Shown here piece after piece: positions 855 through 35,363 of a stretch of 64,000 nt of DNA. This DNA comes from Prevotella sp. (GTDB lineage: Bacteria > Bacteroidota > Bacteroidia > Bacteroidales > Bacteroidaceae), in assembly GCA_024681875.1 (NCBI GenBank), contig JAILAA010000006.1:1-64000 (forward strand), in the 5' to 3' direction. A model generated the notes under the pieces. That model made no database searches, was not told the DNA's origin, and saw only the letters and a program-made list of their open reading frames with translations. The position numbers and the translations under genes are program-made. Positions within the stretch are counted from its first letter, which is position 1. Each line of letters starts with the position of its first letter.

Positions 855-2342
855 TTACATTCCGCCTAAGTTCATGCTGATATTCTGCTCGCGATGACAC
901 AAGTGCACCTCCACCTGGGGGAACTTTTTGTGGATATGCTCAGCCAGATGCTGGGCGGAGTAGACGGAACGGTGCTGGCCGCCCGTACAGCCGAAGCTGA
1001 ACATGAGCGAGGTGAAGCCACGGTCGATGTAGCGCTGAACGTGGGTATCGGCCAATGCGTAGACGTGGTCAAGGAAGCGCAGTATTTCACCGTCGTCCTC
1101 CAGAAACTTAATGACGGCCTCGTCCAGTCCCGTCAGGTGTTTGTATTCCTCATAGCGACCAGGATTATGGGTACCACGGCAGTCGAAGACATAGCCGCCG
1201 CCATTGCCGCTCTCGTCCTGGGGTATACCTTTCTTATAGCTGAAGCTGAAGATGCGGACGGTGAGTTTAGAGGTGAGAGTTGAGGGGTGAGGGGTGAGAG
1301 AATTGTGTTGAGAGGGGTGGGGGAGAAGGTGAGAAGCAAGCTGATAGAGCGTGTCAGTCATGTGGGGGTAAGCATCCTTCAAGAGGGGGGCATCCTGTTC
1401 CAAAAGTCGTTTCAGACTGTCAATGGCCGGCGGTATGCTTTTGATGAAGTGTGGCTTGCGTTCGAAGTAGCCGCGATAGCCGTAGGCACCTAATACCTGC
1501 ATCAGCCGGAAAAGCACGAAGAGGCGTAAACGGTTGTTAAAGTCTTCCCTTGAGTATAGTGATATATATTTCTGTGCTTCAGCGTAATAAACATCAAGTA
1601 GCTCTTTTTTCAATTTATCAGGATAGCGTGCTGAAGCCTGCCAAAGGAAGGAAGCCAGATCGTAGTAGATTGGTCCTCGACGTCCTCCCTGAAAATCGAT
1701 GAGAAACAAGCTGTCTGTACCATCTGCGAGCATGATGTTGCGGGCCTGAAAGTCGCGGTAAAGGAACGTAGTGCCCTTCTCTTGGGTCAGATCCTTGGCC
1801 AGTTGACGGAAGTCATATTCAAGGCGCAGTTCATGGAAATCAACACCCGAGGGCTTCAGGAAACAATATTTAAAGTAGTTCAGGTCGAACATCACATTGG
1901 TCTCGTCGAACTCAGGCTGCGGATAGCACACGCTGAAATCGAGACCCTCAGCGCCCTCAAACTGTATGCGCGGCAAGAGGCGCATCACCTGCTTTAAGAG
2001 ATTCTGCTCTTTCTCGTCATATTGACCGCCAGCCTCACGGCCTTTACTTAGAGCATCGAAGAGCGACGTGTTGCCCAAATCCTGTTGGAGATAGAAAAGC
2101 TCGTCGTCACTTACAGCCAACACCTCAGGTACGGGCAGGCTCTTTGACTTGAAATGGCGTGCCAATGTGATGAATGCGTGGTTTTCCTCGCGGCTGGTAC
2201 CCGCACAACCTATCACGGTCTGCCCTTTTTCTTTTCCCAGTCGCACATACACGCGATTGCTGCCGGCACCCGGCATTTTCTCCACGATGACAGGCATTGT
2301 TCCACTCCACAGCCTGTATAGTTCTGTTAATTCCTTTATCAT
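855..2342 (-). CDS. APH-family sugar kinase fused to RapZ C-terminal domain
   Basis: This 495-residue protein has two domains. Residues 1-330 are an aminoglycoside-phosphotransferase-like kinase of the AmgK type. The catalytic loop is YRDFQARN (195-202), keeping Asp and Asn but with Tyr where His is usual; the metal-binding motif is IDFQGG (215-220). Residues 362-495 match the C-terminal domain of RapZ, with the signature CTGGQHRSV near 452-460. In E. coli that domain senses glucosamine-6-phosphate; the N-terminal Walker NTPase half of RapZ is absent here. A low-complexity linker of Ser, Pro, His, Leu and Thr (333-361) joins the domains. A role in amino-sugar or cell-wall-sugar metabolism is inferred. 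It lies 42 bases downstream of the reductase gene with no promoter box between, so they are probably co-transcribed. Confidence 0.85.
   Translation of the reverse strand: MIKELTELYRLWSGTMPVIVEKMPGAGSNRVYVRLGKEKGQTVIGCAGTSREENHAFITLARHFKSKSLPVPEVLAVSDDELFYLQQDLGNTSLFDALSKGREAGGQYDEKEQNLLKQVMRLLPRIQFEGAEGLDFSVCYPQPEFDETNVMFDLNYFKYCFLKPSGVDFHELRLEYDFRQLAKDLTQEKGTTFLYRDFQARNIMLADGTDSLFLIDFQGGRRGPIYYDLASFLWQASARYPDKLKKELLDVYYAEAQKYISLYSREDFNNRLRLFVLFRLMQVLGAYGYRGYFERKPHFIKSIPPAIDSLKRLLEQDAPLLKDAYPHMTDTLYQLASHLLPHPSQHNSLTPHPSTLTSKLTVRIFSFSYKKGIPQDESGNGGGYVFDCRGTHNPGRYEEYKHLTGLDEAVIKFLEDDGEILRFLDHVYALADTHVQRYIDRGFTSLMFSFGCTGGQHRSVYSAQHLAEHIHKKFPQVEVHLCHREQNISMNLGGM
1258..1344. repeat. Low-complexity GGTGAG/GAGGGGTG tract in the kinase-RapZ linker
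   Basis: The plus strand is made almost only of G, A and T in short imperfect repeats of gaggtgag and ggggtgag. In the minus-strand gene it encodes the Ser/Pro/His/Leu-rich linker. Related CTCACC-type tracts occur at 10703-10735, 13157-13173, 26987-27010 and 36511-36530. Confidence 0.7.
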
Positions 2343-20917: not shown

Positions 20918-23900
20918 ATGAGAATAAAACTGTTCTATTCTTTCCTTTTGTTTTTTTCGGTATCGATGACTCAAAAGGTTCAGGCTCAGAGCGAGCTCTA
21001 CCCCAAGCATTTCGATTTGGAGCAGGTGACGCTGCTGGACGGCCCGATGAAGACGGCCATGAACAAGAATCTGCAGCATTTGATGCAGTATGATGTTGAC
21101 CGACTGCTGACTCCTTTCGTGCGTCAGGCAGGTCTGTCGAAAACCACCGATGCCTCCTCGCCTTATTACCATTGGGAGACGAAGCATCCCAACTTCCCCA
21201 ACTGGGGTGGCGATGCGGGCTTCGACTTGAGTGGCCATGTGGGTGGTCACTACCTGTCAGCCCTCGCCTTGGGGTGGGCCGCCTGTCACGACGAGGACAT
21301 GCGTACGCAGCTGAAGGAGCGCATGGACTATATGCTACAGGTGATGAAGGACTGTCAGGATGCCTACGATAGCAATACCGAGGGCCTTTACGGCTTCATC
21401 GGCGGCCAGCCCATCAACGACTCTTGGAAGGCGCTCTTTCAGGGCGACCTCTCGAAGATTCAGGGCAACTGGGGCTGGGTGCCTTTCTATGTGCAGCATA
21501 AGATTCTGGCCGGTCTGCGCGACGCATATCTCTATGGCAACAGCGAAGTGGCCAAGGAGATGTTCCACAAGATGGCTGACTGGAGCGTGAACCTCATCGC
21601 CAAGGTCAGCGACAGCGACTTCGAGGGCTTCCTCAACTGCGAGCACGGCGGTATGAACGAGTCGATGCTCGATGCCTACCAGCTCTTTAGCGACGCGAAG
21701 TATCTCAAAGCTGCGAAGAAATACACCCATAAGGCTATGCTCAACGGTATGCTGACACTGAACACTACTTTCCTCGACGGCAAGCACGCCAATACGCAGG
21801 TGCCCAAGTTCATCGGCATGGAGCGTATTTTCGAGCAGAGCGGCACGCTGACCAATTATAAGAAAGCTGCCGAGAACTTCTGGCAGGACGTGGCAACTAA
21901 CCGCACCGTCTGCATTGGCGGAAACTCAGTGGGCGAGCACTTCCTTTCGGTGGAGAACAGCAACCGCTACATCGACCAGCTGGACGGGCCTGAGAGCTGC
22001 AACTCGAACAATATGCTGAAACTATCGGAGATGATGGCCGACCGTACCGGTGATGCCAAGTACGTTGACTTCTACGAGGGAACGATGTGGAATCATATCC
22101 TCTCTACGCAAGACCCTGAGACTGGCGGCTACGTCTATTTCACTACGCTGCGCCCCCAGGGCTACCGCGTCTACTCACAGCCCAACCAGGGCATGTGGTG
22201 CTGTGTGGGAACGGGCATGGAGAACCACTCGAAGTACGGGCATTTCATCTATACCCATGACGGAAGCGAGACGCTGTACGTCAATCTATTCACCCCTTCA
22301 CATCTTGAAAGCAGCGACTTTGTCATCACACAGGAAACGTCATTCCCTAACAGCAGTTCTACCATGCTGACCGTTGGCAAGGAAGGCCACTACACCATAG
22401 CCATCCGTCATCCTGCCTGGTCTGGCACGAACTATAGCATCGGCATCAACGGCAGTGTGCTCGACGGTTTAAGCATTGAGAAGGGCGTTGCAAGCTTTGT
22501 TCCAGTCACCCGCGACTGGAAGAAAGGCGACAACATCACCGTCAGTCTTGACCCGCAGCTGCGCTATGAGGAGTGTCCCAACTATACCGACTACATCGCC
22601 TTCAAGTTTGGCCCCATTCTGCTTGGCGCTGCTACCACGGCTCTTTCCCAGGATGACAACAACGACCTTCCCTATGAGCAGCTGCGTAATGAATATGCCG
22701 GCGCAGGCCGCATGGATCACGCGCCGGGCGCCGTGGCCACCTCGAAGAGCCTCATCGATGCTCCTCTGCTCATCGGTGACCGTGCAGACGTGCTCAGTCG
22801 CATCGAGCGCTTGCGCACCGTCGACCTCAAGTTCGTTATTGATGCTTCGCGTCCTGATGTTAGTTCCTATAAGTGGTCGTCGCTGAAGCTTGTTCCTTTC
22901 TATATGATTCACCATCAGCGCTATATGTGCTACTGGTATCAGCAGACTGCCGAAAACTTTGCCAACAGCACGATGGCACAGACAGAGGCTGAGCGCGAGG
23001 CGCTGGAGAAACGTACCATAGACTTCGTGGCACCTGGAGAGCAGCAGAGCGAGGCTGGCCATGATGTTTTGTATAGCAATGGCAGCAGCACTGGCTTGTA
23101 TAACTCAGAGCGCTATCGTGATGCCCGTGCCAACGGCTACATCCAGTATACATTATATAATAATAGCGGCGTGGATGAGCACTTGAGCGTGATGATGCGT
23201 TTCAATCTGGCCGACAAAGGCCGCAAAGCCACGCTGAGCGTAGACGGCACGAAGATAGCCGACATCACCATTCCCACCAGCTATAAGAACAGCGACAGCA
23301 ATGGCTTCTACAACGTGGAGTATGCCATTCCTGCTGAGTTGGCTAAAGGAAAGACAAAGTTTGTTGTGCGGCTGAAAGCCAGCAACAGTACGCTTTGCCC
23401 GGGCATCTATTATGTGCGCCTGATGAGGGACTACAACCCCGAAGCCAAAGCCTACCAGTTTCGCTGCACCGACTGGACGACGGGCGACCCCAGCCGAGTC
23501 GATGCCAGCAACATCACCTACGACACCGAGAAGAATATCATCCATGTGAAGGCAGGTACAGGCGACAACAACGTTGCCTTGACGATGAAATACGAAACGC
23601 TGGATTACGACATTGACAAGTCGCAGACTTTCCTTGTGGTAAGGGGCTCAAACCTGAAGACCACCTCAGGTGCCAGCTATTTGTGGTGGCTCAACGGCGT
23701 CAATCGTGGCTCACAGGTGAATCCGTCTGTTTCAAAGACTATCATAGTCAGTGGCGAGCAGCAGCAGGTGGTGGCTTTCAATATGAAGACCAGTGGACTT
23801 TACGACAACTTCACCGGCGAAAGGCCCAACGTATGCATGGGTGCAACCATCTTCGGCCTTACTTCCACTACGGGCACCAGTCACATCTTCGACATCAACT

Positions 23901-24049
23901 ATGTCAGCAACGTCGACGACTACATTTCTTCAGCTACAGCTGTTGTTTCACCGACTTGGCAGGAAATGCCCGACGTGGAGTATGACTTGGGCGGAAGGCT
24001 TGCCACGGGCAAGGGAATACGCATCAGCAAGAAAGGAAAGCACATATGA
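20918..24049 (+). CDS. GH127/GH146-family glycosidase (DUF1680), probable beta-L-arabinofuranosidase
   Basis: This 1043-residue exported enzyme has a signal peptide (residues 1-24) and an alpha-barrel catalytic domain of the DUF1680 type. The zinc-thiolate site known from beta-L-arabinofuranosidases is visible as ESC (E359, C361) and CC (C428, C429); one of the paired cysteines is the nucleophile in the family. GGNSVGEHF at about 335-343 may hold the acid/base Glu. Beta-sandwich regions fill the C-terminal half, and the tail EYDLGGRLATGKGI is type IX-like. Substrates are arabinofuranosides of plant glycans or possibly related furanosides. It heads an operon with SGNH esterase and UDP-galactopyranose mutase genes. 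Confidence 0.87.
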   Translation: MRIKLFYSFLLFFSVSMTQKVQAQSELYPKHFDLEQVTLLDGPMKTAMNKNLQHLMQYDVDRLLTPFVRQAGLSKTTDASSPYYHWETKHPNFPNWGGDAGFDLSGHVGGHYLSALALGWAACHDEDMRTQLKERMDYMLQVMKDCQDAYDSNTEGLYGFIGGQPINDSWKALFQGDLSKIQGNWGWVPFYVQHKILAGLRDAYLYGNSEVAKEMFHKMADWSVNLIAKVSDSDFEGFLNCEHGGMNESMLDAYQLFSDAKYLKAAKKYTHKAMLNGMLTLNTTFLDGKHANTQVPKFIGMERIFEQSGTLTNYKKAAENFWQDVATNRTVCIGGNSVGEHFLSVENSNRYIDQLDGPESCNSNNMLKLSEMMADRTGDAKYVDFYEGTMWNHILSTQDPETGGYVYFTTLRPQGYRVYSQPNQGMWCCVGTGMENHSKYGHFIYTHDGSETLYVNLFTPSHLESSDFVITQETSFPNSSSTMLTVGKEGHYTIAIRHPAWSGTNYSIGINGSVLDGLSIEKGVASFVPVTRDWKKGDNITVSLDPQLRYEECPNYTDYIAFKFGPILLGAATTALSQDDNNDLPYEQLRNEYAGAGRMDHAPGAVATSKSLIDAPLLIGDRADVLSRIERLRTVDLKFVIDASRPDVSSYKWSSLKLVPFYMIHHQRYMCYWYQQTAENFANSTMAQTEAEREALEKRTIDFVAPGEQQSEAGHDVLYSNGSSTGLYNSERYRDARANGYIQYTLYNNSGVDEHLSVMMRFNLADKGRKATLSVDGTKIADITIPTSYKNSDSNGFYNVEYAIPAELAKGKTKFVVRLKASNSTLCPGIYYVRLMRDYNPEAKAYQFRCTDWTTGDPSRVDASNITYDTEKNIIHVKAGTGDNNVALTMKYETLDYDIDKSQTFLVVRGSNLKTTSGASYLWWLNGVNRGSQVNPSVSKTIIVSGEQQQVVAFNMKTSGLYDNFTGERPNVCMGATIFGLTSTTGTSHIFDINYVSNVDDYISSATAVVSPTWQEMPDVEYDLGGRLATGKGIRISKKGKHI

Positions 24050-24855
24050 AAAACAAGTACATTTCGCTGCTGCTCTGTCTGACGCTGGTCATACCAGCCT
24101 TGCCTCAGTCTTTTACTGAGCACCCGTGGAAAGGGAAGCGTGTAGCCTATTTAGGTGACAGCATCACCGACCCGCGCAACAGCGGCTCGAAGAAAAAATT
24201 CTGGAACTTCCTGCAGGAATGGCTTGACATCACGCCCTATGTCTATGGCGTCAGCGGTAGGCAATGGAATGACGTTCCGAGACAGACCGATCTGTTGATG
24301 AAGGAGCACGGGCAGGACGTGGATGCCATCATCGTGTTCATGGGCACCAATGACTATAACAATGGTGTTCCGGTAGGCCAGTGGTGGGATGAACGTGTTA
24401 CGCAGGTTGAATACGGACATGGCCAGCCTAAGACCATGGTGACGCGACGTCAGCGCACACCGTCGATGGATGCCACTACGTTCAAGGGGCGCATTAACAT
24501 TGCATTGGACTCGCTGAAGCGTACTTTTCCAGAAAAGCAGATTGTCCTGCTGACGCCCATTCACCGCTCAGACTTTCATGCCAACGAGAAGAACTGGCAG
24601 TGCGACGAGTCGTACACCAACCAGTGCGGCGAATATCTCGATGCCTACATCGATGCCGTCAAAGAGGCTGGCAATGTGTGGGCTGTGCCTGTAATAGACT
24701 GGAATTCCACCAGTGGACTCTTCCCCCTGATAAAGGAGCACGAAGTCTACTTCAAGAGCGAGACCGACCTGTTGCATCCCAACGACAAGGGCCATGAGCG
24801 TCTGGCTCGCACGCTGATGTACCAGCTGCTGACACTCCCCTGTACCTTTGAATAG
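24046..24855 (+). CDS. Exported SGNH/GDSL hydrolase
   Basis: This 269-residue protein has a signal peptide followed by the SGNH core: the serine block GDSITDP, an Asn block in GTNDYNN and the catalytic Asp and His in DLLHPNDKGHERLA. Such enzymes remove acetyl or other acyl groups from polysaccharides. Its start overlaps the glycosidase stop (ATGA at 24046-24049), so the two are translationally coupled. They probably act together on an esterified glycan, the esterase exposing the sugar for the glycosidase. Confidence 0.88.
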   Translation: MKNKYISLLLCLTLVIPALPQSFTEHPWKGKRVAYLGDSITDPRNSGSKKKFWNFLQEWLDITPYVYGVSGRQWNDVPRQTDLLMKEHGQDVDAIIVFMGTNDYNNGVPVGQWWDERVTQVEYGHGQPKTMVTRRQRTPSMDATTFKGRINIALDSLKRTFPEKQIVLLTPIHRSDFHANEKNWQCDESYTNQCGEYLDAYIDAVKEAGNVWAVPVIDWNSTSGLFPLIKEHEVYFKSETDLLHPNDKGHERLARTLMYQLLTLPCTFE

Positions 24856-24862
24856 ACAAGGA

Positions 24863-25966
24863 ATGAAACCATACGACTATCTCATCGTGGGAGCAGGCTT
24901 CTTCGGAGCCACCTTCGCTCACTTGGCTACACAGTCAGGCAAGCGCTGTCTCGTAGTAGACAAGCGGAGCCACACAGGCGGCAATGCCTATTGCAAGGAT
25001 GTGGACGGCATTCATGTCCACCTGTACGGCGCACATATCTTCCATACCGGGAACAAAGAAGTGTGGGACTTTGTCAACCGCTTGGCCACCTTCAACCGCT
25101 ACACCAACTCCCCTATTGCCAACTACAAGGGCCGTCTGTTCAACCTGCCGTTCAACATGAACACCTTTTATCAGCTGTGGGGCGTGCGCACTCCTCAGGA
25201 GGCCAAGGCGAAGATTGATGAACAGAGGCAGGAGATGCTGGGACGTGAGCCGCAGAATCTGGAGGAGCAGGCCATCTCGCTGGTAGGACGTGACATCTAC
25301 GAAATACTCGTCAAGGACTACACCGAGAAGCAATGGGGCCGCAAGTGTACTGAACTGCCCGCGTTCATCATCCGCCGTCTGCCTGTACGCCTCACCTTCG
25401 ACAACAATTATTTCAGCGACCCCTATCAGGGAATACCCATCGGCGGCTACAATGTCATCATCGATAAGCTGCTGGCAGGTTCAGAGGTGCGGCTTGCGAC
25501 GGATTTTCTTCAGCATCGTGCAGAATTGAGCGAGCTGGCCACGACAGTGGTCTACAGCGGCGCCATTGACGCTTACTTCGACTATAGTCTTGGCCATTTA
25601 GACTGGCGCACACTTCGCTTCGAACACGAGCGCTTGGAAATACCCGACTATCAGGGCAATGCCGTAATGAACTTCACCGATGCCGACACCCCCTACACAC
25701 GTATTATCGAGCACAAGCACTTTGAATTCGGGCAGCAGCCTTTCACCGTCATCAGCCGTGAGTATAGCAGCGAGTGGACGATAGGGGCCGAGCCTTTCTA
25801 CACCGTTAACGACGAGCGAAACAACCAGTTGGCCGGGCAGTATCGTGAGTTGGCCCGACAGCAACCCCACACCCTCTTCTGCGGTCGGCTGGCAGAATAC
25901 CGCTACTATGACATAGACCAGGTCGTCAGCCGAGCCTTCGAGTGTTGGGCTATGGTTAATCAATAA
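24863..25966 (+). CDS. glf: UDP-galactopyranose mutase
   Basis: Glf converts UDP-galactopyranose to UDP-galactofuranose, using reduced FAD, and supplies Galf for surface polysaccharides. The 367-residue protein begins with the FAD dinucleotide fold (YLIVGAGFFGATFA) and keeps HTGGNAY, HIFHTGNKEVWDF, FNLPFNM and the ERP-type tail region. The start is the ATG at 24863; an in-frame TTG at 24848 is less likely. It is 8 bases after the esterase gene and is the first cytoplasmic sugar-nucleotide enzyme in an operon that otherwise begins with exported enzymes. Confidence 0.93.
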   Translation: MKPYDYLIVGAGFFGATFAHLATQSGKRCLVVDKRSHTGGNAYCKDVDGIHVHLYGAHIFHTGNKEVWDFVNRLATFNRYTNSPIANYKGRLFNLPFNMNTFYQLWGVRTPQEAKAKIDEQRQEMLGREPQNLEEQAISLVGRDIYEILVKDYTEKQWGRKCTELPAFIIRRLPVRLTFDNNYFSDPYQGIPIGGYNVIIDKLLAGSEVRLATDFLQHRAELSELATTVVYSGAIDAYFDYSLGHLDWRTLRFEHERLEIPDYQGNAVMNFTDADTPYTRIIEHKHFEFGQQPFTVISREYSSEWTIGAEPFYTVNDERNNQLAGQYRELARQQPHTLFCGRLAEYRYYDIDQVVSRAFECWAMVNQ

Positions 25967-25979
25967 TAATGAATAGAAA

Positions 25980-27800
25980 ATGCAAGCAATCATACTGGCG
26001 GCGGGAATGGGCCGCAGACTTGGAGAGTACACCAAGAATAACACCAAGTGCATGGTGCCTGTCAATGGTACGCCGCTTATAGACAGGCTGTTAGGTGAAT
26101 TGGTAAAACAAACGCTGCAGCGTGTCATTCTTGTCGTGGGCTATAAGGGACAGGAGCTGAAAGACTATATAGACCACCGCTATGACGACAGGCTGAAGAT
26201 AGAGTATGTCGAAAATCCCGTATACGACAAGACGAACAACATCTATTCGTTGGCACTGGCCAAAGAACAGCTACAGGAAGATGACACTTTGCTGGTGGAA
26301 AGCGACCTGATTTTCAGCGACCGTCTCATCCCGATGGTCTTGGAAAACCCACAGCCCAACCTCGCACTGGTGGCGAAATACGAGAGCTGGATGGACGGCA
26401 CAATGGTAACTATCGACGAGGAAAGTAACATTGTGAACTTCATCTCGAAGGACGCTTTCAACTATGCAGATGCAGACAAGTATTACAAGACGGTAAACAT
26501 CTACAAGTTCAGCCGTGAGTTCTTGCAGACGAAGTATGTGCCATTCCTCGATGCCTATACCAAGGCAGTAGGGTTGAATGAATATTACGAGAATGTCTTG
26601 CGCATCCTCTTGCTGCTGAACAGCCACGACTTGAAGGCGCTGTCCGTCGGTGGTGAAAAATGGTATGAGATAGACGACAAGCAAGACCTTGACATCGCCG
26701 AGGCCATCTTTGCCGACGAGGAACACATGCTTCGCAAATACTATGGGCGCTATGGCGGCTTCTGGCGCTTTCCGCAGATGCTTGATTTCTGCTATCTGGT
26801 TAACCCCTATTTCCCCAGCCGCAGGTTGAAGGACGAGTTGCGTGCCAACTTCGACACGCTGCTCACGGAATATCCGTCGGGCATGAAGGTCAACACGCTC
26901 ATTGCCAGCAAGAGCTTTGGAGTGAGCGAGCAGTACATCGTGCCTGGCAACGGCGCAGCAGAGCTCATCAAGGTGCTGATGGAGACTCACACCTCACACC
27001 TCACAACAGGCTTCATCCGTCCCACCTTCGAGGAATATCCCAACCGCTATGACAAGGACAGGCAGGTGACCTTCGTGCCACAGAACGCCGACTACCGCTA
27101 TACTGCCGACGACTTGATGGCATTCTTTGCCGACAAGGGCATCGCCCAGCTGATGCTTATCAACCCCGACAACCCTTCGGGCAACTTCATCCCCAAGGAC
27201 GACGTGCTGCGCCTGGCGGCATGGTGCGAGGAACGCGCCATTCGCTTAGTTGTAGACGAGAGCTTTGTAGACTTCAGTGAAGACTATACCACGAACTCGC
27301 TGTTGAGCGATGCCACGTTAGAGGCCTATCCCCACATGGCCGTGATGAAGAGCATCTCGAAGAGCTATGGCGTGCCGGGCCTTCGCCTGGGCATTCTCGC
27401 CTCAGCCGACAAGGAGCTCATTGCCTGCATCAAGAAAGAGGTGAGCATCTGGAATCTCAACTCCTTTGCAGAGTTCTTCATGCAGATCTACAACAAGCAC
27501 GAGAACGACTACCGGCACGCCTGCGCCAAGTTCGTGGCCGAGCGTGCCAGCTTCTTTCAGCAGCTGCGCACCATATCCTTCCTGCGTGTCATGCCCTCGC
27601 AGGCCAACTACTTCCTCTGCGAGGTGCTGCCGCCATACAAGGCCAGCGAGATAGTGGTGAGCCTATTGAAACGGCACAACATACTGACACGCGACTGCAG
27701 CCTGAAGCCCGGACTTGACCCTGAAAGGCAATACATGCGCATTGCCGTGCGCAACCATGAGGACAATCAGCGGCTCATAGAGGCGTTAAAAGAATTGTAG
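25980..27800 (+). CDS. Fusion of a LicC-like nucleotidyltransferase and a CobC/HisC-like aminotransferase or decarboxylase
   Basis: This 606-residue cytoplasmic enzyme has two parts. Residues 1-240 are a sugar- or choline-phosphate nucleotidyltransferase (ILAAGMGRRLGEYT, KCMVPVNGTPLI, LVESDLIF). Residues 265-606 are a class I/II PLP enzyme. The PLP lysine is K461 in SISKSYGVPGLRLG, with NPDNPSGNF and VDESFVDF, the last two closer to L-threonine-phosphate decarboxylase (CobC/CobD) than to ordinary HisC. A logical product is a CDP-linked amino alcohol: the PLP half would make phosphoethanolamine or a relative from a phospho-amino acid and the other half would activate it. This is inference. The nearby licD gene would be the transferase. 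A known parallel is PntC, which fuses a nucleotidyltransferase to an aminoethylphosphonate transaminase. Confidence 0.82.
   Translation: MQAIILAAGMGRRLGEYTKNNTKCMVPVNGTPLIDRLLGELVKQTLQRVILVVGYKGQELKDYIDHRYDDRLKIEYVENPVYDKTNNIYSLALAKEQLQEDDTLLVESDLIFSDRLIPMVLENPQPNLALVAKYESWMDGTMVTIDEESNIVNFISKDAFNYADADKYYKTVNIYKFSREFLQTKYVPFLDAYTKAVGLNEYYENVLRILLLLNSHDLKALSVGGEKWYEIDDKQDLDIAEAIFADEEHMLRKYYGRYGGFWRFPQMLDFCYLVNPYFPSRRLKDELRANFDTLLTEYPSGMKVNTLIASKSFGVSEQYIVPGNGAAELIKVLMETHTSHLTTGFIRPTFEEYPNRYDKDRQVTFVPQNADYRYTADDLMAFFADKGIAQLMLINPDNPSGNFIPKDDVLRLAAWCEERAIRLVVDESFVDFSEDYTTNSLLSDATLEAYPHMAVMKSISKSYGVPGLRLGILASADKELIACIKKEVSIWNLNSFAEFFMQIYNKHENDYRHACAKFVAERASFFQQLRTISFLRVMPSQANYFLCEVLPPYKASEIVVSLLKRHNILTRDCSLKPGLDPERQYMRIAVRNHEDNQRLIEALKEL
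26987..27010 (+). repeat. Short CTCACACCTCACA tract inside the fusion gene
   Basis: Imperfect repeats of ctcacacc encode HTSHLTT within the aminotransferase half. They match the low-complexity family seen elsewhere in the window and lie on a probable surface loop between MET and GFIRPTFEEYP. Confidence 0.5.
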
Positions 27801-27804
27801 AGCC

Positions 27805-28809
27805 ATGAAGGTCTGTATCTGTGGCGGAGGCAATCTGGGACATGTCATAGCCGGCTTCGTGTCGGCTCAGCATCCCTTCGAAGTGAGTGTCTTTACGCGG
27901 CATCCCGAGCGATGGCAGCAGGAGCTGATAGTTGAGACCCCGGAAGGAACGGCGCTCACAGGAAAGCTGGCGGATGTAACCAGCGATGCCCGTCAGGCAG
28001 TCACGGGTGCCGATGTAGTGTTGCTGTGCCTTCCGGGATACGCCATTAGGGAGATGCTGTGCGAGATAAGGGAATACCTGACACCTTCAACGGCCGTAGG
28101 CAGCGTTGTCAGCAGCACAGGCTTCTTCTTCGTGGCCGACGAAGTCCTCCCGCCGTCCATCCCCATCTTCGGATTTCAGCGTGTACCCTTCATAGCACGC
28201 ATCATCGACTATGGCCGTCACGCACGCCTTATGGGCTACAAAGACCGTCTTCATGTAGCCATAGAGCATACAGAAAACAAGGAAAAGACACGCCGCACAC
28301 TGGAGCTCATGCTGAAGACACCCGTCTCATTGCTGCAGAGCCATTATGAAGCAAGCCTTTCCAACAGTAACCCGCTGCTGCATCCTTCCCGTCTGTACGA
28401 CCTGTGGAGCGACTGGCATGAAGGCCTTTTTTACGAGCGAGAGCCCCTGTTCTATGAAGAGTGGACAGAAAGGGCCGCACAGCTGTATATCGATATGGAC
28501 AGCGAGTTGCAGCGCCTGTTGCGTGTGCTGCCTGTCAGGAGCGGCAGCATCCCCACGGTGTTAGATTATTACGAGAGCCACGATGCCGTCTCTTTGGCTG
28601 CGAAGCTGCGCAGCATTGAAGCCTTCAAGGGAATCAAGGCCCCCATGAGGCTGACGGCGGGCGGTTATGTGCCTGATTTCGGGAGCCGCTATTTCGTTGA
28701 GGATTTTCCTTATGGCCTGTCTTTCATTCACCAACTGATGCACGCGAAGGGCATCCCGTCGCCAACTATTGACAGAGTCTTGGCCTGGGGTCTGACCACC
28801 AGGCTCTGA
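27805..28809 (+). CDS. NAD(P)-dependent opine-dehydrogenase-like protein
   Basis: This 334-residue protein has an N-terminal Rossmann fold (CICGGGNLGHVIAGF) and a C-terminal helical domain typical of octopine/nopaline dehydrogenases, with SNSNPLLHPSRLYDL carrying the conserved His. Those enzymes join an amino acid to a 2-oxo acid by reductive condensation. Five bases separate it from the fusion gene, so they are almost certainly co-transcribed. It may therefore modify the amino group of the headgroup made by that enzyme, much as N-(1-carboxyethyl) amino acids decorate some O-antigens. Its 3' end overlaps the convergent licD gene by 44 bases. Confidence 0.85.
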   Translation: MKVCICGGGNLGHVIAGFVSAQHPFEVSVFTRHPERWQQELIVETPEGTALTGKLADVTSDARQAVTGADVVLLCLPGYAIREMLCEIREYLTPSTAVGSVVSSTGFFFVADEVLPPSIPIFGFQRVPFIARIIDYGRHARLMGYKDRLHVAIEHTENKEKTRRTLELMLKTPVSLLQSHYEASLSNSNPLLHPSRLYDLWSDWHEGLFYEREPLFYEEWTERAAQLYIDMDSELQRLLRVLPVRSGSIPTVLDYYESHDAVSLAAKLRSIEAFKGIKAPMRLTAGGYVPDFGSRYFVEDFPYGLSFIHQLMHAKGIPSPTIDRVLAWGLTTRL

Positions 28810-29572
28810 AGTGATGCGTGACACGCTGCTCTACAGGCGGCAGGGTCATGTAGTCGCCATAGGTGTGCGACAGATAATCCTGATAGCCGATCATGGTCTT
28901 ATAGGTCTTCCCCTCAAACACGATGTCCGTCTGGGCTGCGATGTCCTCTGCGGGAAAACAATGCCCGATGGTGGGGCCTGCCTCTGTCATGTTGCAGACC
29001 GTGCCTGTTGGCTTGTCGGAGACAATAAGCCTCCTGATGGTGCGCTCTATCTTCTTCACGGACATGGGCCAGTGCTTGTAGACGATGTATGCCAACTTTG
29101 AATAGAGCGGGTTGAAGGAGGAGATCTTGCAACGCCGTATCTTGTAGAGCAGCTTCTTTTTCTTGAACACGCGCTCGCGCTCTGCCATGTCTTCTGTGAC
29201 GTAGTCTACGGGGAAGATGTCTATGTAGACGCCTATCTCATATCCTTCCACCTCGTCTTCCACCATCCTTGTGCGTGTGTCAATGACCTTGGCGAAGGTG
29301 TAGTAGTAGTGCGGCTCTTTCGACGGGCTGAGCAGCCTGTACGTGCCCGTTGCGTCGGCAAACTGCTCCATTATCAGGTCGTAGTCGCGGCGCGGCATGT
29401 AGATGTCTACATCGTCGTCCCATGGGATATAGCCGCCGTGGCGCACGGCTCCGATGAGGGTGCCGCTGGACAGGAAGTAGGTGAGGCCGTGTTGCTGGCA
29501 GAACTGGTGAACGTAGTCGAGGATGCCTAACTGTATGCTGCGGAGCTCTTGTGTGTCGGTGATTGGCTTCAT
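28766..29572 (-). CDS. LicD-family phosphotransferase
   Basis: LicD proteins move a phosphorylated headgroup such as phosphocholine from a CDP carrier to a surface glycan. The 268-residue protein shows the family core: FLSSGTLIGAVRHGGYIPWDDDVDIYMPR (about residues 31-59), with a DDDVD metal site, and YLSHTYGDYMTLPP near the end. The start at 29572 is preferred over a longer frame overlapping asnA. It follows asnA by 11 bases on the same strand. It runs head-on into the opine-dehydrogenase gene, and its last 14 or so codons lie inside that gene. Confidence 0.9.
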   Translation of the reverse strand: MKPITDTQELRSIQLGILDYVHQFCQQHGLTYFLSSGTLIGAVRHGGYIPWDDDVDIYMPRRDYDLIMEQFADATGTYRLLSPSKEPHYYYTFAKVIDTRTRMVEDEVEGYEIGVYIDIFPVDYVTEDMAERERVFKKKKLLYKIRRCKISSFNPLYSKLAYIVYKHWPMSVKKIERTIRRLIVSDKPTGTVCNMTEAGPTIGHCFPAEDIAAQTDIVFEGKTYKTMIGYQDYLSHTYGDYMTLPPVEQRVTHHFRAWWSDPRPRLCQ

Positions 29573-29583
29573 GTTGCTTGCTT

Positions 29584-30621
29584 TCAGATGAGAGGCATTC
29601 CCAGCCGCCGACATTCCTGCCGCATGTCTTCAGGCCAGATGCTGGCCTGTATCTCGCCTACGTGGGCTTTGTGCAGCAGCACCATGCAGAGGCGGCTCTG
29701 GCCTATTCCGCCGCCGATGCTGAGCGGCAGGCGGTCGTGCAGCAGCTGCTGGTGGAAGTAGAGTTGCTGTCTGCTCTCCTGGCCTTCCAGCTTCAGCTGG
29801 CGCAGGAGGCTCTCTTTGTCGACGCGTATGCCCATGGACGAGAGTTCTATGGAGTGTCCGAGAACGGGATACCAGATGAGGATGTCGCCATTGAGGCCTT
29901 TCAGCCCGTTTTCTGCCACGGTGCTCCAGTCATCGTAGTCAGGGGCTCGGCCGTCATGCTTCTCGCCATTGCTCAACAGGCCTCCGATGCCGATGATGAA
30001 CACTGCGCCGTAGGCTTCGCAGATGGCGTCCTCGCGCTCTTTCGGCGTCTTGTCGGGGTACATCCGGAGCAGCTCTTCGGCATGGATGAAATGTGTTTTC
30101 TCGGGCAGGAACGGCTGCAGCTGCGGGTAGGTCTCGCATGTAAGGTATTCGGTACGGCGGATGGCTGCGTAGATGCGCTCCACAACGTTGCGCAGGAAAG
30201 CCAGCGTGCGGTCTTCACGGGCAATGACGGCTTCCCAGTCCCACTGGTCGACATAAAGTGAATGTAGGTTGTCGAGCTCTTCGTCGGCACGTATGGCGTT
30301 CATGTCTGTGTAGACGCCGTAGCCGCGCTCTATTTCGTATTCGGCCAGCGTCAGACGCTTCCATTTCGCCAACGAGTGCACCACCTCGGCACGGGCGTCG
30401 CCCAAATCCTTGATGGGGAAACTGACAGGACGCTCGACGCCGTTCAAGTCGTCGTTGATGCCGAGTCCTTTCAGCACGAACAACGGCGCCGTGACGCGGC
30501 GAAGGCGCAGCTCGGTGCTCAGGTTTTGCTGAAAGAACTCCTTGATGAGTTTGATGCCCTGCTCTGTCTGGCGCATGTCAAGCAGGCGCTTGTAGTTGAT
30601 GGGATAGATGACCTTACTCAT
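29584..30621 (-). CDS. asnA: Ammonia-dependent asparagine synthetase (aspartate-ammonia ligase)
   Basis: AsnA makes asparagine from aspartate, ammonia and ATP through an aspartyl-AMP. The 345-residue protein resembles the core of a class II aminoacyl-tRNA synthetase. Visible blocks include VERPVSFPIKD, SLAKWKRLTLAEYEI, GVYTDMNAIR, YVDQWDWE, LGHSIELSSMGIRVD and LPLSIGGGIGQSRLCM. It is transcribed from its own consensus promoter and is followed by licD. Whether that pairing is functional or accidental is unclear; ammonia and amino-acid supply is a possible link. Confidence 0.95.
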   Translation of the reverse strand: MSKVIYPINYKRLLDMRQTEQGIKLIKEFFQQNLSTELRLRRVTAPLFVLKGLGINDDLNGVERPVSFPIKDLGDARAEVVHSLAKWKRLTLAEYEIERGYGVYTDMNAIRADEELDNLHSLYVDQWDWEAVIAREDRTLAFLRNVVERIYAAIRRTEYLTCETYPQLQPFLPEKTHFIHAEELLRMYPDKTPKEREDAICEAYGAVFIIGIGGLLSNGEKHDGRAPDYDDWSTVAENGLKGLNGDILIWYPVLGHSIELSSMGIRVDKESLLRQLKLEGQESRQQLYFHQQLLHDRLPLSIGGGIGQSRLCMVLLHKAHVGEIQASIWPEDMRQECRRLGMPLI

Positions 30622-30933: not shown

Positions 30934-33900
30934 ATGAAAAGACTTATTTTAGCGTTATTGGCTCTGGCCACCGGATGGACAAGCCTTTTGGCACAAAGAC
31001 AAACTGACATTCTGGACCGTGGCCTTGTGGCGGTGCCTTCAGGCTCGGGTGCTTTTGTCAGCTGGCGTATCTTTGGCGAGGAGTATTACGATACGCAGTA
31101 CAACCTCTATCGCAACGGTGTGAAGATAGCCGGTCCGCTGAGTGTCTCCAATTACGTTGACCCGGATGGAAGGTCCGGGTCAAAATATCAGGTGGCAGCC
31201 GTCGTTCGCGGCACGGAGCAGGAGAAATGTGCCGAGGTGACACGCCTCAATCAACAGTATATTCAGTTTGCCGTGAAAAGCGTGACAAGCCGTACTGGCA
31301 GCAATATCACCAACGACTACAACATCAACGACATTGCTTTGGCTGACGTCGACGGCGATGGGATGTCGGAATTCATCGTAAAGCGCAACTATGTTGACGG
31401 CAGTTCGGTCGATGCCACCGCCTTTAACCTGTTGGAATGTTACAACATCAAGGGCGACAGGCTGTGGTATATTGACCTTGGGCCCAACATGGTGAGCGGC
31501 CCCGACGAGCAATATGACGCTGTGGGCTATGATTGGGACGGTGACGGCAAAGCCGAAATCCTGCTGCGCGGTGCCGACAACATGATCATCTATCATGCCG
31601 ACGGTACCACAACCAACATCGGCAATATGAATGTCAACACCCGCAACACCGTCAACCAGACTGCCAACATGACCTATACCAACTCTGGGGCGGAATACCT
31701 GCTGTATCTGGACGGACTGACAGGTAAGCCGTATCCCATTGGCAACAACGGACAGCTGTGGATGGACTATCCATTGCCACGTGGAAATGTCAATGACTGG
31801 GGCGACGGCTATGGCCACCGTTCCACGAAGCACTATTTCGGTGCGCCTTTCCTTGACGGACGGCACGCTTTCATCTTCCTCGGAAGAGGTTGTTACACCA
31901 AGCACCACATGAAGGCTTTCTCTGTCAATCCCGACACACATAAGCTTACACAATACTGGGAATGGAAAGGAGAGACGTGGCCCTACTTCGGCCAAGGATA
32001 CCATAACTACGGCATTGCCGATGTGGACTGGGATGGCCGCGATGAAATCGTCTTTGGCTCAATGGTCATCGACGACAACGGCAAAGGACTGCATACGACG
32101 GGTCTCGGACATGGCGATGCCCAGCATTGCTCTGACTTCGACCCCTACCGTCACGGTCAGGAAATCTTTGCCTGCAACGAAGACAGTCCGGCCATGAACT
32201 ACCGCGACGGCACTACAGGAAAGATTTACTATCGCCTGCAGTCGACAAGCGACGACGGAAGAGCCCTATGCGGAAATTTCTCCAACAACTATCCCGGAGC
32301 CATTGGCCATAGTTCACAATCAGGCACCATATCGTGTGTGGCCGACAAAGTCATTAGCGGAGCTCCCGGAGGTTTCACCAACAACTGGCGCATTTACTGG
32401 GACGGCGACTTACTTGAGGAGGGCCTTGACGGAGCCAGCTCCCGTGAAGGAGCAGCCCGTGTCTTCAAGGCTGACGGCAGCATCGTGTTCACTGCCGACG
32501 GCACCGCCAACTGCAACTGGACAAAGAACACCCCCTCTGCTGTTGGCGACATTCTGGGCGACTGGCGCGAGGAGATTGTTCAGCGCACCACAGATAATAA
32601 GTATATACGCGTATACACGACCAACATTTCTACGAAATGGCGTAACTACACTTTATGGCACGACCATCAATATCGTCAGGGTATGGTCTGGGAGAGCATG
32701 GGCTATAACCAGCCCCCTCATGCCAGCTATTTCCTCGGTGAGCTGGAAGGAATAACCATTGCGCCGCCGCCACTCACTATGACGGGCCGCACTGAGGTGA
32801 GTAATAACGGCACCATCGGCACTGAACACAACGACAAGCACGTCATTGTCTGCGAGACAAACGACACGCACATCACCGTTGCTGAAGGCGCTAACCCTTA
32901 TATGGTGACGTTTAACATTCCGTCATGGGTGCAGGGTACTAACAGTACCAATACTTCGGGCAATCCAAACATCCGCTATACCTATTATAACTGCGAGGTC
33001 AGCGGCGCAGCTTTTACGGGTGACATGCGCTTAGTGAAGCAAGGCGACGGTACACTCGTATTGCCTAAGACCGACAACACTTACACCGGCGAGACCAATG
33101 TGTGGGCTGGAACACTTGTCTTCGACGGCACGCTGAAGAACTCTAAGCTCTGGCTCAACCGCTTTGCCAAGCTCATCAGCAATGGCGGCGCTTTCCGTAG
33201 CATCAAAATGGAATACGATGCCCATCTGCTGCCTGGTGGCGAAAGCAACATTGGCACCATCAGCATCGACACACTTACGATGGGTTTCGGTGCCCGTGTC
33301 GTCATTGACCTCAACACCGAAGGAAAGCTGGCCGACAATCTGCAAACCATCTACATGAGTATAGAGAAGAAGAACTGGCAGTACGGTCCTAAATATTTGC
33401 AACCTGTCTTTGAGTTTGTCGTTCCTTCAGGTCAGGATATTCTTGAGGGCAACTACCTTCTGGGTACCATCGAGACGCTGAATGGTAACCTGGACGACAT
33501 CCGCATTGAAGGCTTAGGTACGAAGATGAAAAGCAAATTGGCGCTGGAAGAAGGTAAGCTCTACCTTGTCATAGAAGGAATGCGAGACCCCTCAGATGTT
33601 TTCTGGACTGGCACAGAATCCAACATATGGAACGTGGCTGACACAGAGAACTTCACGAGCAGCGAGGGAGAAAACGACATCTTCGTCAGTGGCGACAACG
33701 TACACTTTGACGACACGGCCTCGAAGTTTACCGTCACTCTCAATGGCGAGCTGGAAGCCGACACCGTATTCGTTTCCAATGAGGCTAAATACTACACATT
33801 CAGCGGCACAGGCAGCTTGGTAGGCAGCACTACGCTTGTGAAGCAGGGCAATGGGTTGCTGACCATCAAGAACGATAACAGCTACACTGGCGGCAACCGC

Positions 33901-35343
33901 CTCTCAGGCGGCATTGTCAGCGTCTCTTCGCTGGCCAATGCCAACCAACCCAAGGGTAATCTTGGCGGCGTGACAAACGTAGGCACCAAGTTCATTATGG
34001 AGAACGGTGCTGAGCTGCGCACCACTGCTGCCGTTACCAATGGCTCACCTATCCGTTTTGAGACCGATGAGGGCGGCATTATCAATAACCAGGCTGACTA
34101 CATTGTCGACAAGGCAATGTCAGGCACTGTCCTCACGAAAAAAGGTGCGGGCTGGATGAAGTTGAACACAGCCAACTCATCCCTCAACCGCCTCGTCATT
34201 GTGGCAGGTACCGTGCAGTGCATCAACGCCAACACACCCGCCAAGACTGTAGAGTATCAGGGAGGCACATTGAACGAGAACACCGGCAGTTCGTATAACG
34301 TCTTTGTACCAAGCGGCAAGACCGGCAACTGGTACATGGCCAACCGCTCCACATATTCCAATAAAGTGACCGGCAGTGGCACGCTTACCGTTTATTGCAC
34401 CACGGAGAAAGGTACCAATTACTACGCTACACGTACGCTTATACAATGCAACTTCAGCGAGTTTGAGGGCATTCTCAAGCCCGCATCAAGCTTGGACGAC
34501 GATGTAAAGCGCTTTACGCTGAACACAAGCACCGGAATGCCAAAAGGCACGATGAACATTGCCTCCGATGTGGAGGTGCAGAACAGCGGCAAGACTTTCC
34601 ACATCGGCAAGCTGTCGGGTACAGGAAAATTGGGCGGCAGCTGCAGGTTCAGCAATGGCACCAGCGTTGGGGCCAATACTTGGCAAGTAGGAAACGACAA
34701 TGACTGGGCGACGAGTGTCCGCGTCACCTCAAATGCCAACTTCCAGAAAGTAGGGAAGGGACGGATTATCTGGAGTGGCGCCAGCGACAACACCGGTACG
34801 ACTACCGTCAGTGAAGGCGAGCTGTGTATGGGCGCCAATGGCTTGCTGGGCACCGGCAAGCTCACCATAGATGAAGGCGCCGTCTTCTCCTGCTCCAGCA
34901 AGACCAAGGTACTGAAAAACTCATCGGTCGTCGTCAACGGAATCCTGTCGGTCAATGCATCTCGCTGTGCCACCAACGTTAGCGACGGTTGTACCAGCTT
35001 CTATTTCGAGAAAGGCCTCACCGTGAATGGTACGATACGCATCACAGCCACTGACCATTCATTACAGCCCGGCGACAGCATACGCATTTTCTCAGCGGCC
35101 TCATTCAGCGGCAAGCCGACATTCGATTTCCAAGACGGCATTGAATGGGATACCAGCCGTATCAGTGAAGGACTGCTCTTCGTGAAAGCCATTGGCGCCT
35201 CCATTTCCGATGTGGTCAATGATGCTACGCCGCGGAATATTTATGACGTGAGAGGGCGGTTAGTACGCCGCAATGCCACTCATACCGAGGGACTCCCTGC
35301 AGGCGTCTATGTTTGTGAAGGACGGAAATTCGTAATCAGATAG
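30934..35343 (+). CDS. PL11-type rhamnogalacturonan lyase with autotransporter-like beta-strand repeats
   Basis: This 1469-residue exported protein has a signal peptide (residues 1-20). Residues 21-610 match rhamnogalacturonan lyases of family PL11 (ALADVDGDGMSEF, YDWDGDGKAEILLRG, VDWDGRDEIVFGS, YFLGELEG), which cut the pectin backbone by elimination. The rest, about 690-1390, is a series of beta-strand repeats with the pattern LVKQGDGTLVL...YTGETNVWAGTLV, seen again as LVKQGNGLLTI and QKVGKGRIIW. Such repeats are known from type V autotransporters, yet the C-terminus here (NIYDVRGRLVRR) is a type IX-like sorting tail. PL11 enzymes are normally near 600 residues, so this is more than twice the usual size. 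It is followed by GH3 in the same operon. Confidence 0.85.
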   Translation: MKRLILALLALATGWTSLLAQRQTDILDRGLVAVPSGSGAFVSWRIFGEEYYDTQYNLYRNGVKIAGPLSVSNYVDPDGRSGSKYQVAAVVRGTEQEKCAEVTRLNQQYIQFAVKSVTSRTGSNITNDYNINDIALADVDGDGMSEFIVKRNYVDGSSVDATAFNLLECYNIKGDRLWYIDLGPNMVSGPDEQYDAVGYDWDGDGKAEILLRGADNMIIYHADGTTTNIGNMNVNTRNTVNQTANMTYTNSGAEYLLYLDGLTGKPYPIGNNGQLWMDYPLPRGNVNDWGDGYGHRSTKHYFGAPFLDGRHAFIFLGRGCYTKHHMKAFSVNPDTHKLTQYWEWKGETWPYFGQGYHNYGIADVDWDGRDEIVFGSMVIDDNGKGLHTTGLGHGDAQHCSDFDPYRHGQEIFACNEDSPAMNYRDGTTGKIYYRLQSTSDDGRALCGNFSNNYPGAIGHSSQSGTISCVADKVISGAPGGFTNNWRIYWDGDLLEEGLDGASSREGAARVFKADGSIVFTADGTANCNWTKNTPSAVGDILGDWREEIVQRTTDNKYIRVYTTNISTKWRNYTLWHDHQYRQGMVWESMGYNQPPHASYFLGELEGITIAPPPLTMTGRTEVSNNGTIGTEHNDKHVIVCETNDTHITVAEGANPYMVTFNIPSWVQGTNSTNTSGNPNIRYTYYNCEVSGAAFTGDMRLVKQGDGTLVLPKTDNTYTGETNVWAGTLVFDGTLKNSKLWLNRFAKLISNGGAFRSIKMEYDAHLLPGGESNIGTISIDTLTMGFGARVVIDLNTEGKLADNLQTIYMSIEKKNWQYGPKYLQPVFEFVVPSGQDILEGNYLLGTIETLNGNLDDIRIEGLGTKMKSKLALEEGKLYLVIEGMRDPSDVFWTGTESNIWNVADTENFTSSEGENDIFVSGDNVHFDDTASKFTVTLNGELEADTVFVSNEAKYYTFSGTGSLVGSTTLVKQGNGLLTIKNDNSYTGGNRLSGGIVSVSSLANANQPKGNLGGVTNVGTKFIMENGAELRTTAAVTNGSPIRFETDEGGIINNQADYIVDKAMSGTVLTKKGAGWMKLNTANSSLNRLVIVAGTVQCINANTPAKTVEYQGGTLNENTGSSYNVFVPSGKTGNWYMANRSTYSNKVTGSGTLTVYCTTEKGTNYYATRTLIQCNFSEFEGILKPASSLDDDVKRFTLNTSTGMPKGTMNIASDVEVQNSGKTFHIGKLSGTGKLGGSCRFSNGTSVGANTWQVGNDNDWATSVRVTSNANFQKVGKGRIIWSGASDNTGTTTVSEGELCMGANGLLGTGKLTIDEGAVFSCSSKTKVLKNSSVVVNGILSVNASRCATNVSDGCTSFYFEKGLTVNGTIRITATDHSLQPGDSIRIFSAASFSGKPTFDFQDGIEWDTSRISEGLLFVKAIGASISDVVNDATPRNIYDVRGRLVRRNATHTEGLPAGVYVCEGRKFVIR

Positions 35344-35363
35344 TCTGCACAAAGACAAATGAG

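What the first reader, a model, noticed from the sequence alone, without database searches (positions are those of the whole stretch)
25980..29572. Possible new headgroup pathway: cytidylyltransferase-PLP fusion, opine dehydrogenase and LicD
The sequence shows a nucleotidyltransferase fused to a CobC-like PLP enzyme (DESFVDF, NPDNPSG, SKSYGVPGLRLG), followed 5 bases later by an opine-dehydrogenase-like gene, with a LicD gene convergent to it. Family knowledge: LicD transfers CDP-carried phospho-headgroups; CobC/CobD-type enzymes decarboxylate phospho-amino acids; PntC already shows a nucleotidyltransferase fused to a transaminase. Inference: the fusion may make and activate a phospho-amino-alcohol in one protein, the dehydrogenase may N-carboxyalkylate it, and LicD may attach it to a glycan. 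I do not know of a described pathway with these three parts together.
Basis: partly seen in the sequence, partly recalled or inferred. Interest (0 to 1): 0.8.

Follow-up and report, generated by a model that had tools for sequence, protein, structure and literature searches.

The report
Swappable opine-type phosphoethanolamine headgroup pathway
Prevotella-like bacteria carry a conserved gene trio (a cytidylyltransferase fused to a decarboxylase-like enzyme, an opine-type dehydrogenase and a LicD transferase) that is predicted to make an amino-acid-like phosphoethanolamine group and likely attach it to surface sugars, and the dehydrogenase gene is often replaced by one of an unrelated reductase family.

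Summary
Of 129 fusion loci read, 80 have an opine dehydrogenase (ODH) next after the fusion and 32 an OCD/mu-crystallin reductase, none both. In 201 genomes of the family, 38 of 42 with the fusion have ODH or OCD, against 13 of 159 without. ODH and LicD are one polypeptide in 8 of the loci and in 81 of 120 listed database proteins. The ODH/OCD slot changes as often as shuffled labels on the fusion tree, by clean single-gene replacement. Where the fusion is absent, the same ODH follows a complete 2-aminoethylphosphonate pathway (G716) and OCD a PEP mutase (G408). So the amine is most likely a 2-aminoethyl phosph(on)ate, and the fusion likely makes CDP-ethanolamine from phosphoserine, the isostere of FrbH's reported substrate. 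The expected headgroup, N-(1-carboxyethyl)ethanolamine phosphate, is listed for Proteus mirabilis O-antigens (PMC9630907). No enzyme step has been assayed; CobD and HisC models are matched only below their cut-offs.

The parts
25980..27800 (+). Fusion protein, 606 aa: N-terminal LicC/PntC-type cytidylyltransferase domain (PF12804, residues about 1-245) and C-terminal class I/II PLP domain (PF00155, residues about 252-606, Schiff-base lysine K461)
   Evidence: K23, D109, D232, D233 in 127 of 127 rows, K461 126, R587 126, R591 120 of 127 (L121, L161, L168 left out of those rows); AlphaFold2 model mean pLDDT 92.2
27805..28809 (+). Opine/octopine-dehydrogenase family gene (PF02317), 334 aa; the exchangeable reductase slot
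   Evidence: H193 and D300, which align with H212 and D329 of octopine dehydrogenase 3c7a, are invariant in 81 of 81 rows (L072, L133, L169 left out)
28766..29572 (-). LicD-family transferase (PF04991), convergent, overlapping the ODH by 44 nt
24848..25966 (+). UDP-galactopyranose mutase (glf), 13 nt upstream of the fusion; context, would supply galactofuranose for a surface glycan; same order in L001
   Evidence: (TIGR00031 391 bits, cut-off 304)

Best explanation
The trio most likely builds and attaches an opine-type surface headgroup: the fusion is predicted to decarboxylate O-phospho-L-serine and activate it with CTP to CDP-ethanolamine, the ODH would reductively join a 2-oxo acid (likely pyruvate) to the amine, and LicD would move the finished N-(1-carboxyalkyl)-phosphoethanolamine onto a glycan. 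Shown here: the gene order and its conservation, ODH-LicD single chains, the single-gene exchange of ODH for an OCD/mu-crystallin reductase, and ODH and OCD next to 2-aminoethylphosphonate or PEP-mutase genes in genomes without the fusion. Inferred: the substrate (phosphoserine rather than phosphothreonine), the order of decarboxylation and CMP transfer, whether the reductase acts before or after activation, the keto acid, the stereochemistry and the acceptor. The exchange of ODH for OCD would change the N-substituent (a different keto acid or the opposite epimer), i.e. it would act as an antigen switch.
Confidence: 0.62

Rival explanations
1. The PLP domain decarboxylates phosphothreonine, so the headgroup is N-carboxyalkyl-aminopropanol phosphate; otherwise the pathway is as in the best explanation.
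Against: The same ODH family sits behind a 2-aminoethylphosphonate pathway, which gives a two-carbon amine; by sequence the closest solved structure is SMUL_1544, 146 bits vs 104 for CobD, recalled to be a serine-phosphate decarboxylase; the CobD match is under its cut-off.
Confidence: 0.15
2. The PLP domain is a transaminase that makes a phospho-amino-alcohol from a phospho-keto compound (for example serinol phosphate from dihydroxyacetone phosphate, as stated for Cj1437), which the first domain activates; ODH and LicD then act on it.
Against: CobD 1lkc and SMUL_1544 score highest by fold, and 6oux highest by sequence; the R587/R591 pair (RIAVR) is also in CobD 1lc5 and 6oux, though not in P. 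gingivalis CobD 3fkd (that HisC lacks the second arginine is recalled); the PntC-AEPT hit spans both domains at 22 A rmsd and its PLP domain is class V.
Confidence: 0.15
3. ODH and OCD make a free or glycan-bound amino-acid opine (like carboxyethyl-lysine) unrelated to the phospho-headgroup; they are merely neighbours in variable surface loci.
For: Other opine-type substituents occur on glycans (recalled); distant ODHs sit in polysaccharide loci without the fusion (L179, L181, L182).
Against: Co-occurrence 28 of 42 vs 10 of 159 for ODH, 4-nt overlaps, ODH-LicD single chains, and two alternative reductases in one slot; same reductase behind the phosphonate pathway.
Confidence: 0.08

Closest known systems
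FrbH (FR-900098 biosynthesis)
   Same: PF12804 cytidylyltransferase that acts on L-2-amino-4-phosphonobutyrate, a phosphoserine isostere; its catalytic lysine (K38, PMC6697681 passage) has a likely counterpart in invariant K23; recalled to carry a fused PLP decarboxylase and to give CMP-3-aminopropylphosphonate
   Different: Antibiotic pathway, phosphonate substrate, no opine dehydrogenase or LicD known to me; its sequence was not compared here
PntC-AEPT (6pd1/6pd2) and the Pnt surface phosphonate logic
   Same: Cytidylyltransferase fused to a PLP enzyme making an activated aminoethyl headgroup, with LicD-like genes in the neighbourhoods described (PMC6697681 passages)
   Different: PLP domain is a class V transaminase using a phosphonate; here it is class I/II and decarboxylase-like
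Lic-1 pathway (LicA-LicC-LicD, phosphocholine)
   Same: CDP-activated headgroup transferred by LicD to a glycan (PMC10434233 passages)
   Different: Choline is taken up and phosphorylated; here the headgroup would be made de novo and N-carboxyalkylated
Cj1436 L-serine-phosphate decarboxylase and SMUL_1544 (6oux)
   Same: Cj1436 decarboxylates serine phosphate to ethanolamine phosphate for a capsule (PMC12409886 passage); SMUL_1544, titled a decarboxylase and recalled to act on serine phosphate, is the closest solved sequence
   Different: Stand-alone enzymes without a cytidylyltransferase domain; the Campylobacter product ends as an amide
N-[(R)-1-carboxyethyl]ethanolamine phosphate of Proteus mirabilis O-polysaccharides
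   Same: Exactly the predicted headgroup (PMC9630907 passages)
   Different: No gene for it is named in the passages found in the Proteus O-cluster paper (PMC5560731); Proteus genomes could not be searched here

Membership tests
CobD threonine-phosphate decarboxylase (TIGR01140) | score at or above the curated cut-off 290.55 bits | tested here: not met
   190.0 bits
HisC histidinol-phosphate transaminase (TIGR01141) | score at or above the curated cut-off 276.55 bits | tested here: not met
   147.8 bits
FrbH-type CMP-transferase/decarboxylase fusion | N-terminal PF12804 with a conserved lysine, C-terminal PLP domain with Schiff-base lysine | tested here: met
   K23 in 127 of 127 and K461 in 126 of 127 rows; that K23 equals FrbH K38 rests on the motif as described in PMC6697681, not on an alignment; FrbH's PLP domain is recalled
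FrbH-type CMP-transferase/decarboxylase fusion | sequence relationship to FrbH itself, and CMP transfer plus decarboxylation activity | not tested
   FrbH sequence was not in hand; activity needs an assay
PntC-AEPT | class V aminotransferase domain (PF00266) | tested here: not met
   PLP domain is PF00155, no PF00266 match
Octopine/opine dehydrogenase family (PF02317) | gathering score 30 bits, and catalytic His/Asp | tested here: met
   103 bits; H193/D300 align with H212/D329 of 3c7a, invariant in 81 of 81 rows; the role of H212/D329 is recalled
Opine dehydrogenase activity | NAD(P)H-dependent reductive condensation of an amine with a 2-oxo acid | not testable with these tools
   needs an assay
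LicD (PF04991) | gathering score 22.6 bits | tested here: met
   156.9 bits
Lic-1 phosphocholine pathway | LicA choline kinase and LicB transporter with LicC and LicD | tested here: inconclusive
   the genes beside the trio (glf, GDSL, AsnA) are neither; an APH-RapZ_C protein at 855-2342 matches Choline_kinase only under its cut-off; most window ORFs were not scanned and the genome is not held

The most novel reading that the evidence does not exclude
Prevotella use a modular 'opine headgroup' system: one protein makes CDP-ethanolamine straight from phosphoserine and CTP (a one-enzyme bacterial shortcut to the Kennedy-pathway intermediate), and a scarlessly swapped reductase (ODH or OCD) writes one of two N-carboxyalkyl variants, probably opposite epimers, on the headgroup before LicD or a TagF-type transferase attaches it; the same reductases also decorate aminoethylphosphonate. 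The cassette exchange is a serotype switch that works at the level of a single carbon centre.
Probability: 0.4. Interest if true: 0.85.

Novelty: new variant of a known kind. Interest (0 to 1): 0.72.

Why it matters
If true, it gives a genetic route to a glycan substituent known by structure from Proteus O-antigens (N-carboxyethyl-ethanolamine phosphate) whose genes I did not find in the held library (searches; passages of PMC5560731), a de novo bacterial source of CDP-ethanolamine, and a kind of surface variation in common rumen and gut bacteria in which an unrelated reductase family, not a glycosyltransferase, is swapped. Each step is testable with three enzymes and a cultured strain.

Tried and rejected
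Plain HisC: rejected as best reading (score under cut-off, CobD and SMUL_1544 rank first, separate HisC in P. ruminicola KHT3: L171, 343 bits against 276.55), but not excluded.

The trio as chance neighbours: rejected by the 201-genome sample and the single chains.

OCD as a passenger gene: unlikely, because it replaces ODH exactly between 94% and 91% identical flanks in L045/L049, and likewise in L142/L147 (93%, 97%) and L003/L016 (90%, 83%); but several OCD genes stand alone elsewhere in the genome.

Lineage drift of the slot: 31 ODH/OCD changes on a FastTree of the fusions, 200 shuffles give 28.5 on average (23-33); 16 of 35 sister pairs differ. So the slot carries no more phylogenetic signal than random labels; the tree is a quick one with some weak branches (support median 92, lower tenth 18), which can inflate changes.

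PEP mutase as a control: in 34 of 201 genomes, so its presence in the 4 fusion-less genomes with close ODH or OCD is suggestive, and the direct adjacency (L180, L204, L177) carries the weight.

Searches that led nowhere: papers on carboxyethylamino headgroups (0) and on opine dehydrogenase with LicD (0); Proteus O-cluster paper: no opine, ethanolamine, carboxyethyl or cytidylyl text, Morganella paper: none of the terms; PDB profile search with the PF04464-like cluster (0 hits); PEP mutase near the 129 fusions (0 of 129; near the fusion in L207, L208, L209 by similarity); ODH relatives on plasmids (2 records; L221 opened, no LicD annotated). VIA-align rows cover residues 252-606; the N-terminal domain was judged by Pfam, phmmer (1jyk, 6pd1) and conserved residues. 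The PF04464 assignment of the ten slot-3 proteins is weak: the 9 aligned (of 10) match at E up to 1, best 9e-10, the first at 17.6 bits under the cut-off of 22.1; the relative in L180 passes it (37.2).

Rows dropped or changed before counts: L169 left out as the same contig as L037; L081-L119 (short copies of later-fetched loci) not counted; L132 counted as 'other' although one search places OCD right after its fusion (33 OCD with it); tree and fusion conservation left out L121 (remote), L161 (split), L168 (degenerate) and L169, so the 127 rows are 126 loci plus the window; ODH conservation left out L072, L133, L169.
Full report
WHAT IS THERE. The window (relatives are Prevotella-like; one database protein cluster is 99% identical to the fusion) has glf (24848-25966), the fusion (25980-27800) and ODH (27805-28809) in one row on the plus strand with gaps of 13 and 4 nt, then LicD (28766-29572) and asnA (29584-30621) on the minus strand. 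Pfam, NCBIfam and PDB sequence searches give PF12804 plus PF00155 for the fusion, PF02317 for the ODH and PF04991 for LicD. Likely catalytic residues are intact across relatives: K23, D109, D232, D233 in 127 of 127 rows, K461 in 126 of 127; ODH H193 and D300 in 81 of 81 (rows left out are told under Tried and rejected).

HOW WIDESPREAD. The fusion (E <= 1e-60) is in 42 of 201 genomes drawn from the family of P. ruminicola KHT3, 8 of 198 from its order and 2 of 296 from its phylum (the reference genome is counted in each). More remote relatives exist elsewhere: in Fusobacterium vincentii (49% identical) a LicD lies upstream with two genes between; in Gloeothece verrucosa (35%) an annotated methyltransferase and then LicD follow directly. 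So fusion plus LicD occurs without the opine step, and another possible N-modifying enzyme can stand in the middle (the methyltransferase's role is inferred).

THE REDUCTASE SLOT. Neighbourhoods of 129 loci (80, 49) were read with an ORF caller and HMMs. Directly after the fusion lies ODH in 80 and an OCD/mu-crystallin protein in 32 (PF02423 in the three scanned; NCBIfam neighbours include SbnB and pyrroline-2-carboxylate reductase, all under cut-off); 17 have neither there (one cut by the contig end). No locus has both. Genome counts agree: ODH in 28 of 42 fusion-positive and 10 of 159 fusion-negative genomes, OCD in 11 of 42 and 3 of 159; within the 42, one has both (G357, its OCD a better PF02423 match, E 1e-53, not in the slot), 27 ODH only, 10 OCD only (3 of them on another contig), 4 neither (G358, G418, G432, G461). 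On a tree of 127 fusions the ODH/OCD state of 114 rows needs 31 changes; 200 shuffles need 23-33. Pairs of loci show the exchange directly: L045 and L049 align at 94% through the fusion and at 91% from the next gene on, with ODH in one and OCD in the other. The window's sister in the tree, L001, has OCD. Two ODHs (L064, L072) are inverted.

THE TRANSFERASE SLOT. LicD lies within 2.5 kb of the fusion in 79 of 129 loci and a PF04464-like (CDP-glycerol glycerophosphotransferase) protein in another 10, never both (the PF04464 match is weak for most); L167 has PF01066 (CDP-alcohol phosphatidyltransferase) after its ODH. Known members of all three families use CDP-alcohols (recalled). ODH and LicD are one ORF in 8 of 129 loci, and 81 of the 120 proteins listed for such a query carry both Pfam domains; four are 913-934 aa, and the two read end in what looks by eye like a glycosyltransferase. 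LicD by itself is common (149 of 201 genomes; 41 of the 42 fusion-positive and 108 of 159 others), so presence says little; adjacency and single chains carry the weight.

WHAT THE AMINE IS. Thirteen genomes of the sample have ODH or OCD without the fusion; eight were opened. G472 (L180) has the same ODH subfamily (HMM E 2e-138) behind NTP transferase, PEP mutase, a TPP decarboxylase and an aminotransferase piece that looks broken, and before a PF04464 protein. G408 (L177) has OCD right behind a PEP mutase. G376 has a lone OCD. G370, G319, G484 and G307 have distant members, G373 a contig-end piece. A search of the 37 genomes of G472's genus found ODH in 12: nine lie beside a fusion, one (G700) alone with a fusion on another contig, and two beside phosphonate genes: G472 and G716. 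In G716 (L204), which has no fusion, PEP mutase, phosphonopyruvate decarboxylase and AEP aminotransferase pass NCBI's equivalog cut-offs and ODH overlaps the last by 4 nt. In G408's genus 8 of 19 genomes have OCD: two beside a fusion (G422, G492), one behind PEP mutase (G408), five alone, of which four have a fusion elsewhere (G337, G464, G720, G722) and G376 has a PEP mutase elsewhere. So 20 of 20 have the fusion or a PEP mutase. The base rate of PEP mutase is 34 of 201 (28 of 159 fusion-negative), and most such genomes have neither reductase, so the link is shown by the adjacent loci rather than by these counts. L207, L208 and L209 hold the fusion, ODH and PEP-mutase-like genes together, but none of the 129 first loci does. 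The simplest reading is that ODH and OCD act on a 2-aminoethyl phosphate or phosphonate, free or CMP-bound, and that the fusion is the phosphate-ester counterpart of the AEP-CMP pathway.

WHAT THE PRODUCT IS. N-[(R)-1-carboxyethyl]ethanolamine phosphate is listed among P. mirabilis O-polysaccharide components (PMC9630907, a figure legend and the glossary). In the Proteus O-cluster paper (PMC5560731) a term search found no opine, ethanolamine or carboxyethyl text. That ODH and OCD families may give opposite configuration at the new centre is recalled and untested, hence the epimer-switch idea.

STATUS OF THE CLAIMS. Shown: genes, order, conservation, exchange, single chains, phosphonate neighbours. 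Inferred from families: reactions. Unknown: acceptor, keto acid, stereochemistry, order of steps. Ordinary: each enzyme family is known, and CDP-headgroup transfer by LicD is textbook. New as far as searched: the opine step in that pathway and its swapping; no paper joining opine dehydrogenase with LicD was found in the held library (related searches), which lacks most subscription journals.

Noticed in passing
L219 (Priestia megaterium plasmid pBM700) and L218 (Erwinia rhapontici plasmid): 32-33% relatives of the fusion sit near an AAC(3)-family N-acetyltransferase and ATP-grasp genes; in Priestia a 1-deoxy-D-xylulose-5-phosphate reductoisomerase gene follows, which recalls FR-900098/fosmidomycin-type clusters with a self-resistance target (recalled).
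   Followed up: no
L172 (P. ruminicola KHT3, G001:C26:179900-182400): An unfused HisC-like gene directly followed by a stand-alone PF12804 transferase, with a LicD about 0.8 kb further on the other strand (coordinates): a possible second headgroup pathway.
   Followed up: partly
L207:4041-5180 and L209:4306-5445: An iron-type alcohol dehydrogenase (scanned in L207: best model TIGR03405, under cut-off) between phosphonopyruvate decarboxylase and the fusion: possibly a hydroxyethylphosphonate branch in the same operon.
   Followed up: no
L076:3547-5289, and similar proteins in L078 and L079: A sulfatase-fold protein (PF00884 in L076) follows the reductase region where LicD is missing; could be a further transferase type.
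   Followed up: no
L133:9981-12341: A divergent ODH (29%) is followed by an alanine dehydrogenase/PNT-family protein, perhaps a third reductase type.
   Followed up: no
window 53413-55775: A family-2 glycosyltransferase overlapping a Polysacc_synt_3 flippase about 24 kb from the trio; by eye it resembles flippases that follow the module in other loci (e.g. L001).
   Followed up: no
window 20918-24049 and 30934-37934: The trio is flanked by plant-polysaccharide genes (GH127, rhamnogalacturonan lyase 11; a GH3-like gene by eye), not by a capsule cluster.
   Followed up: no
window 855-2342: A protein joining an APH-type phosphotransferase to a RapZ C-terminal domain.
   Followed up: no
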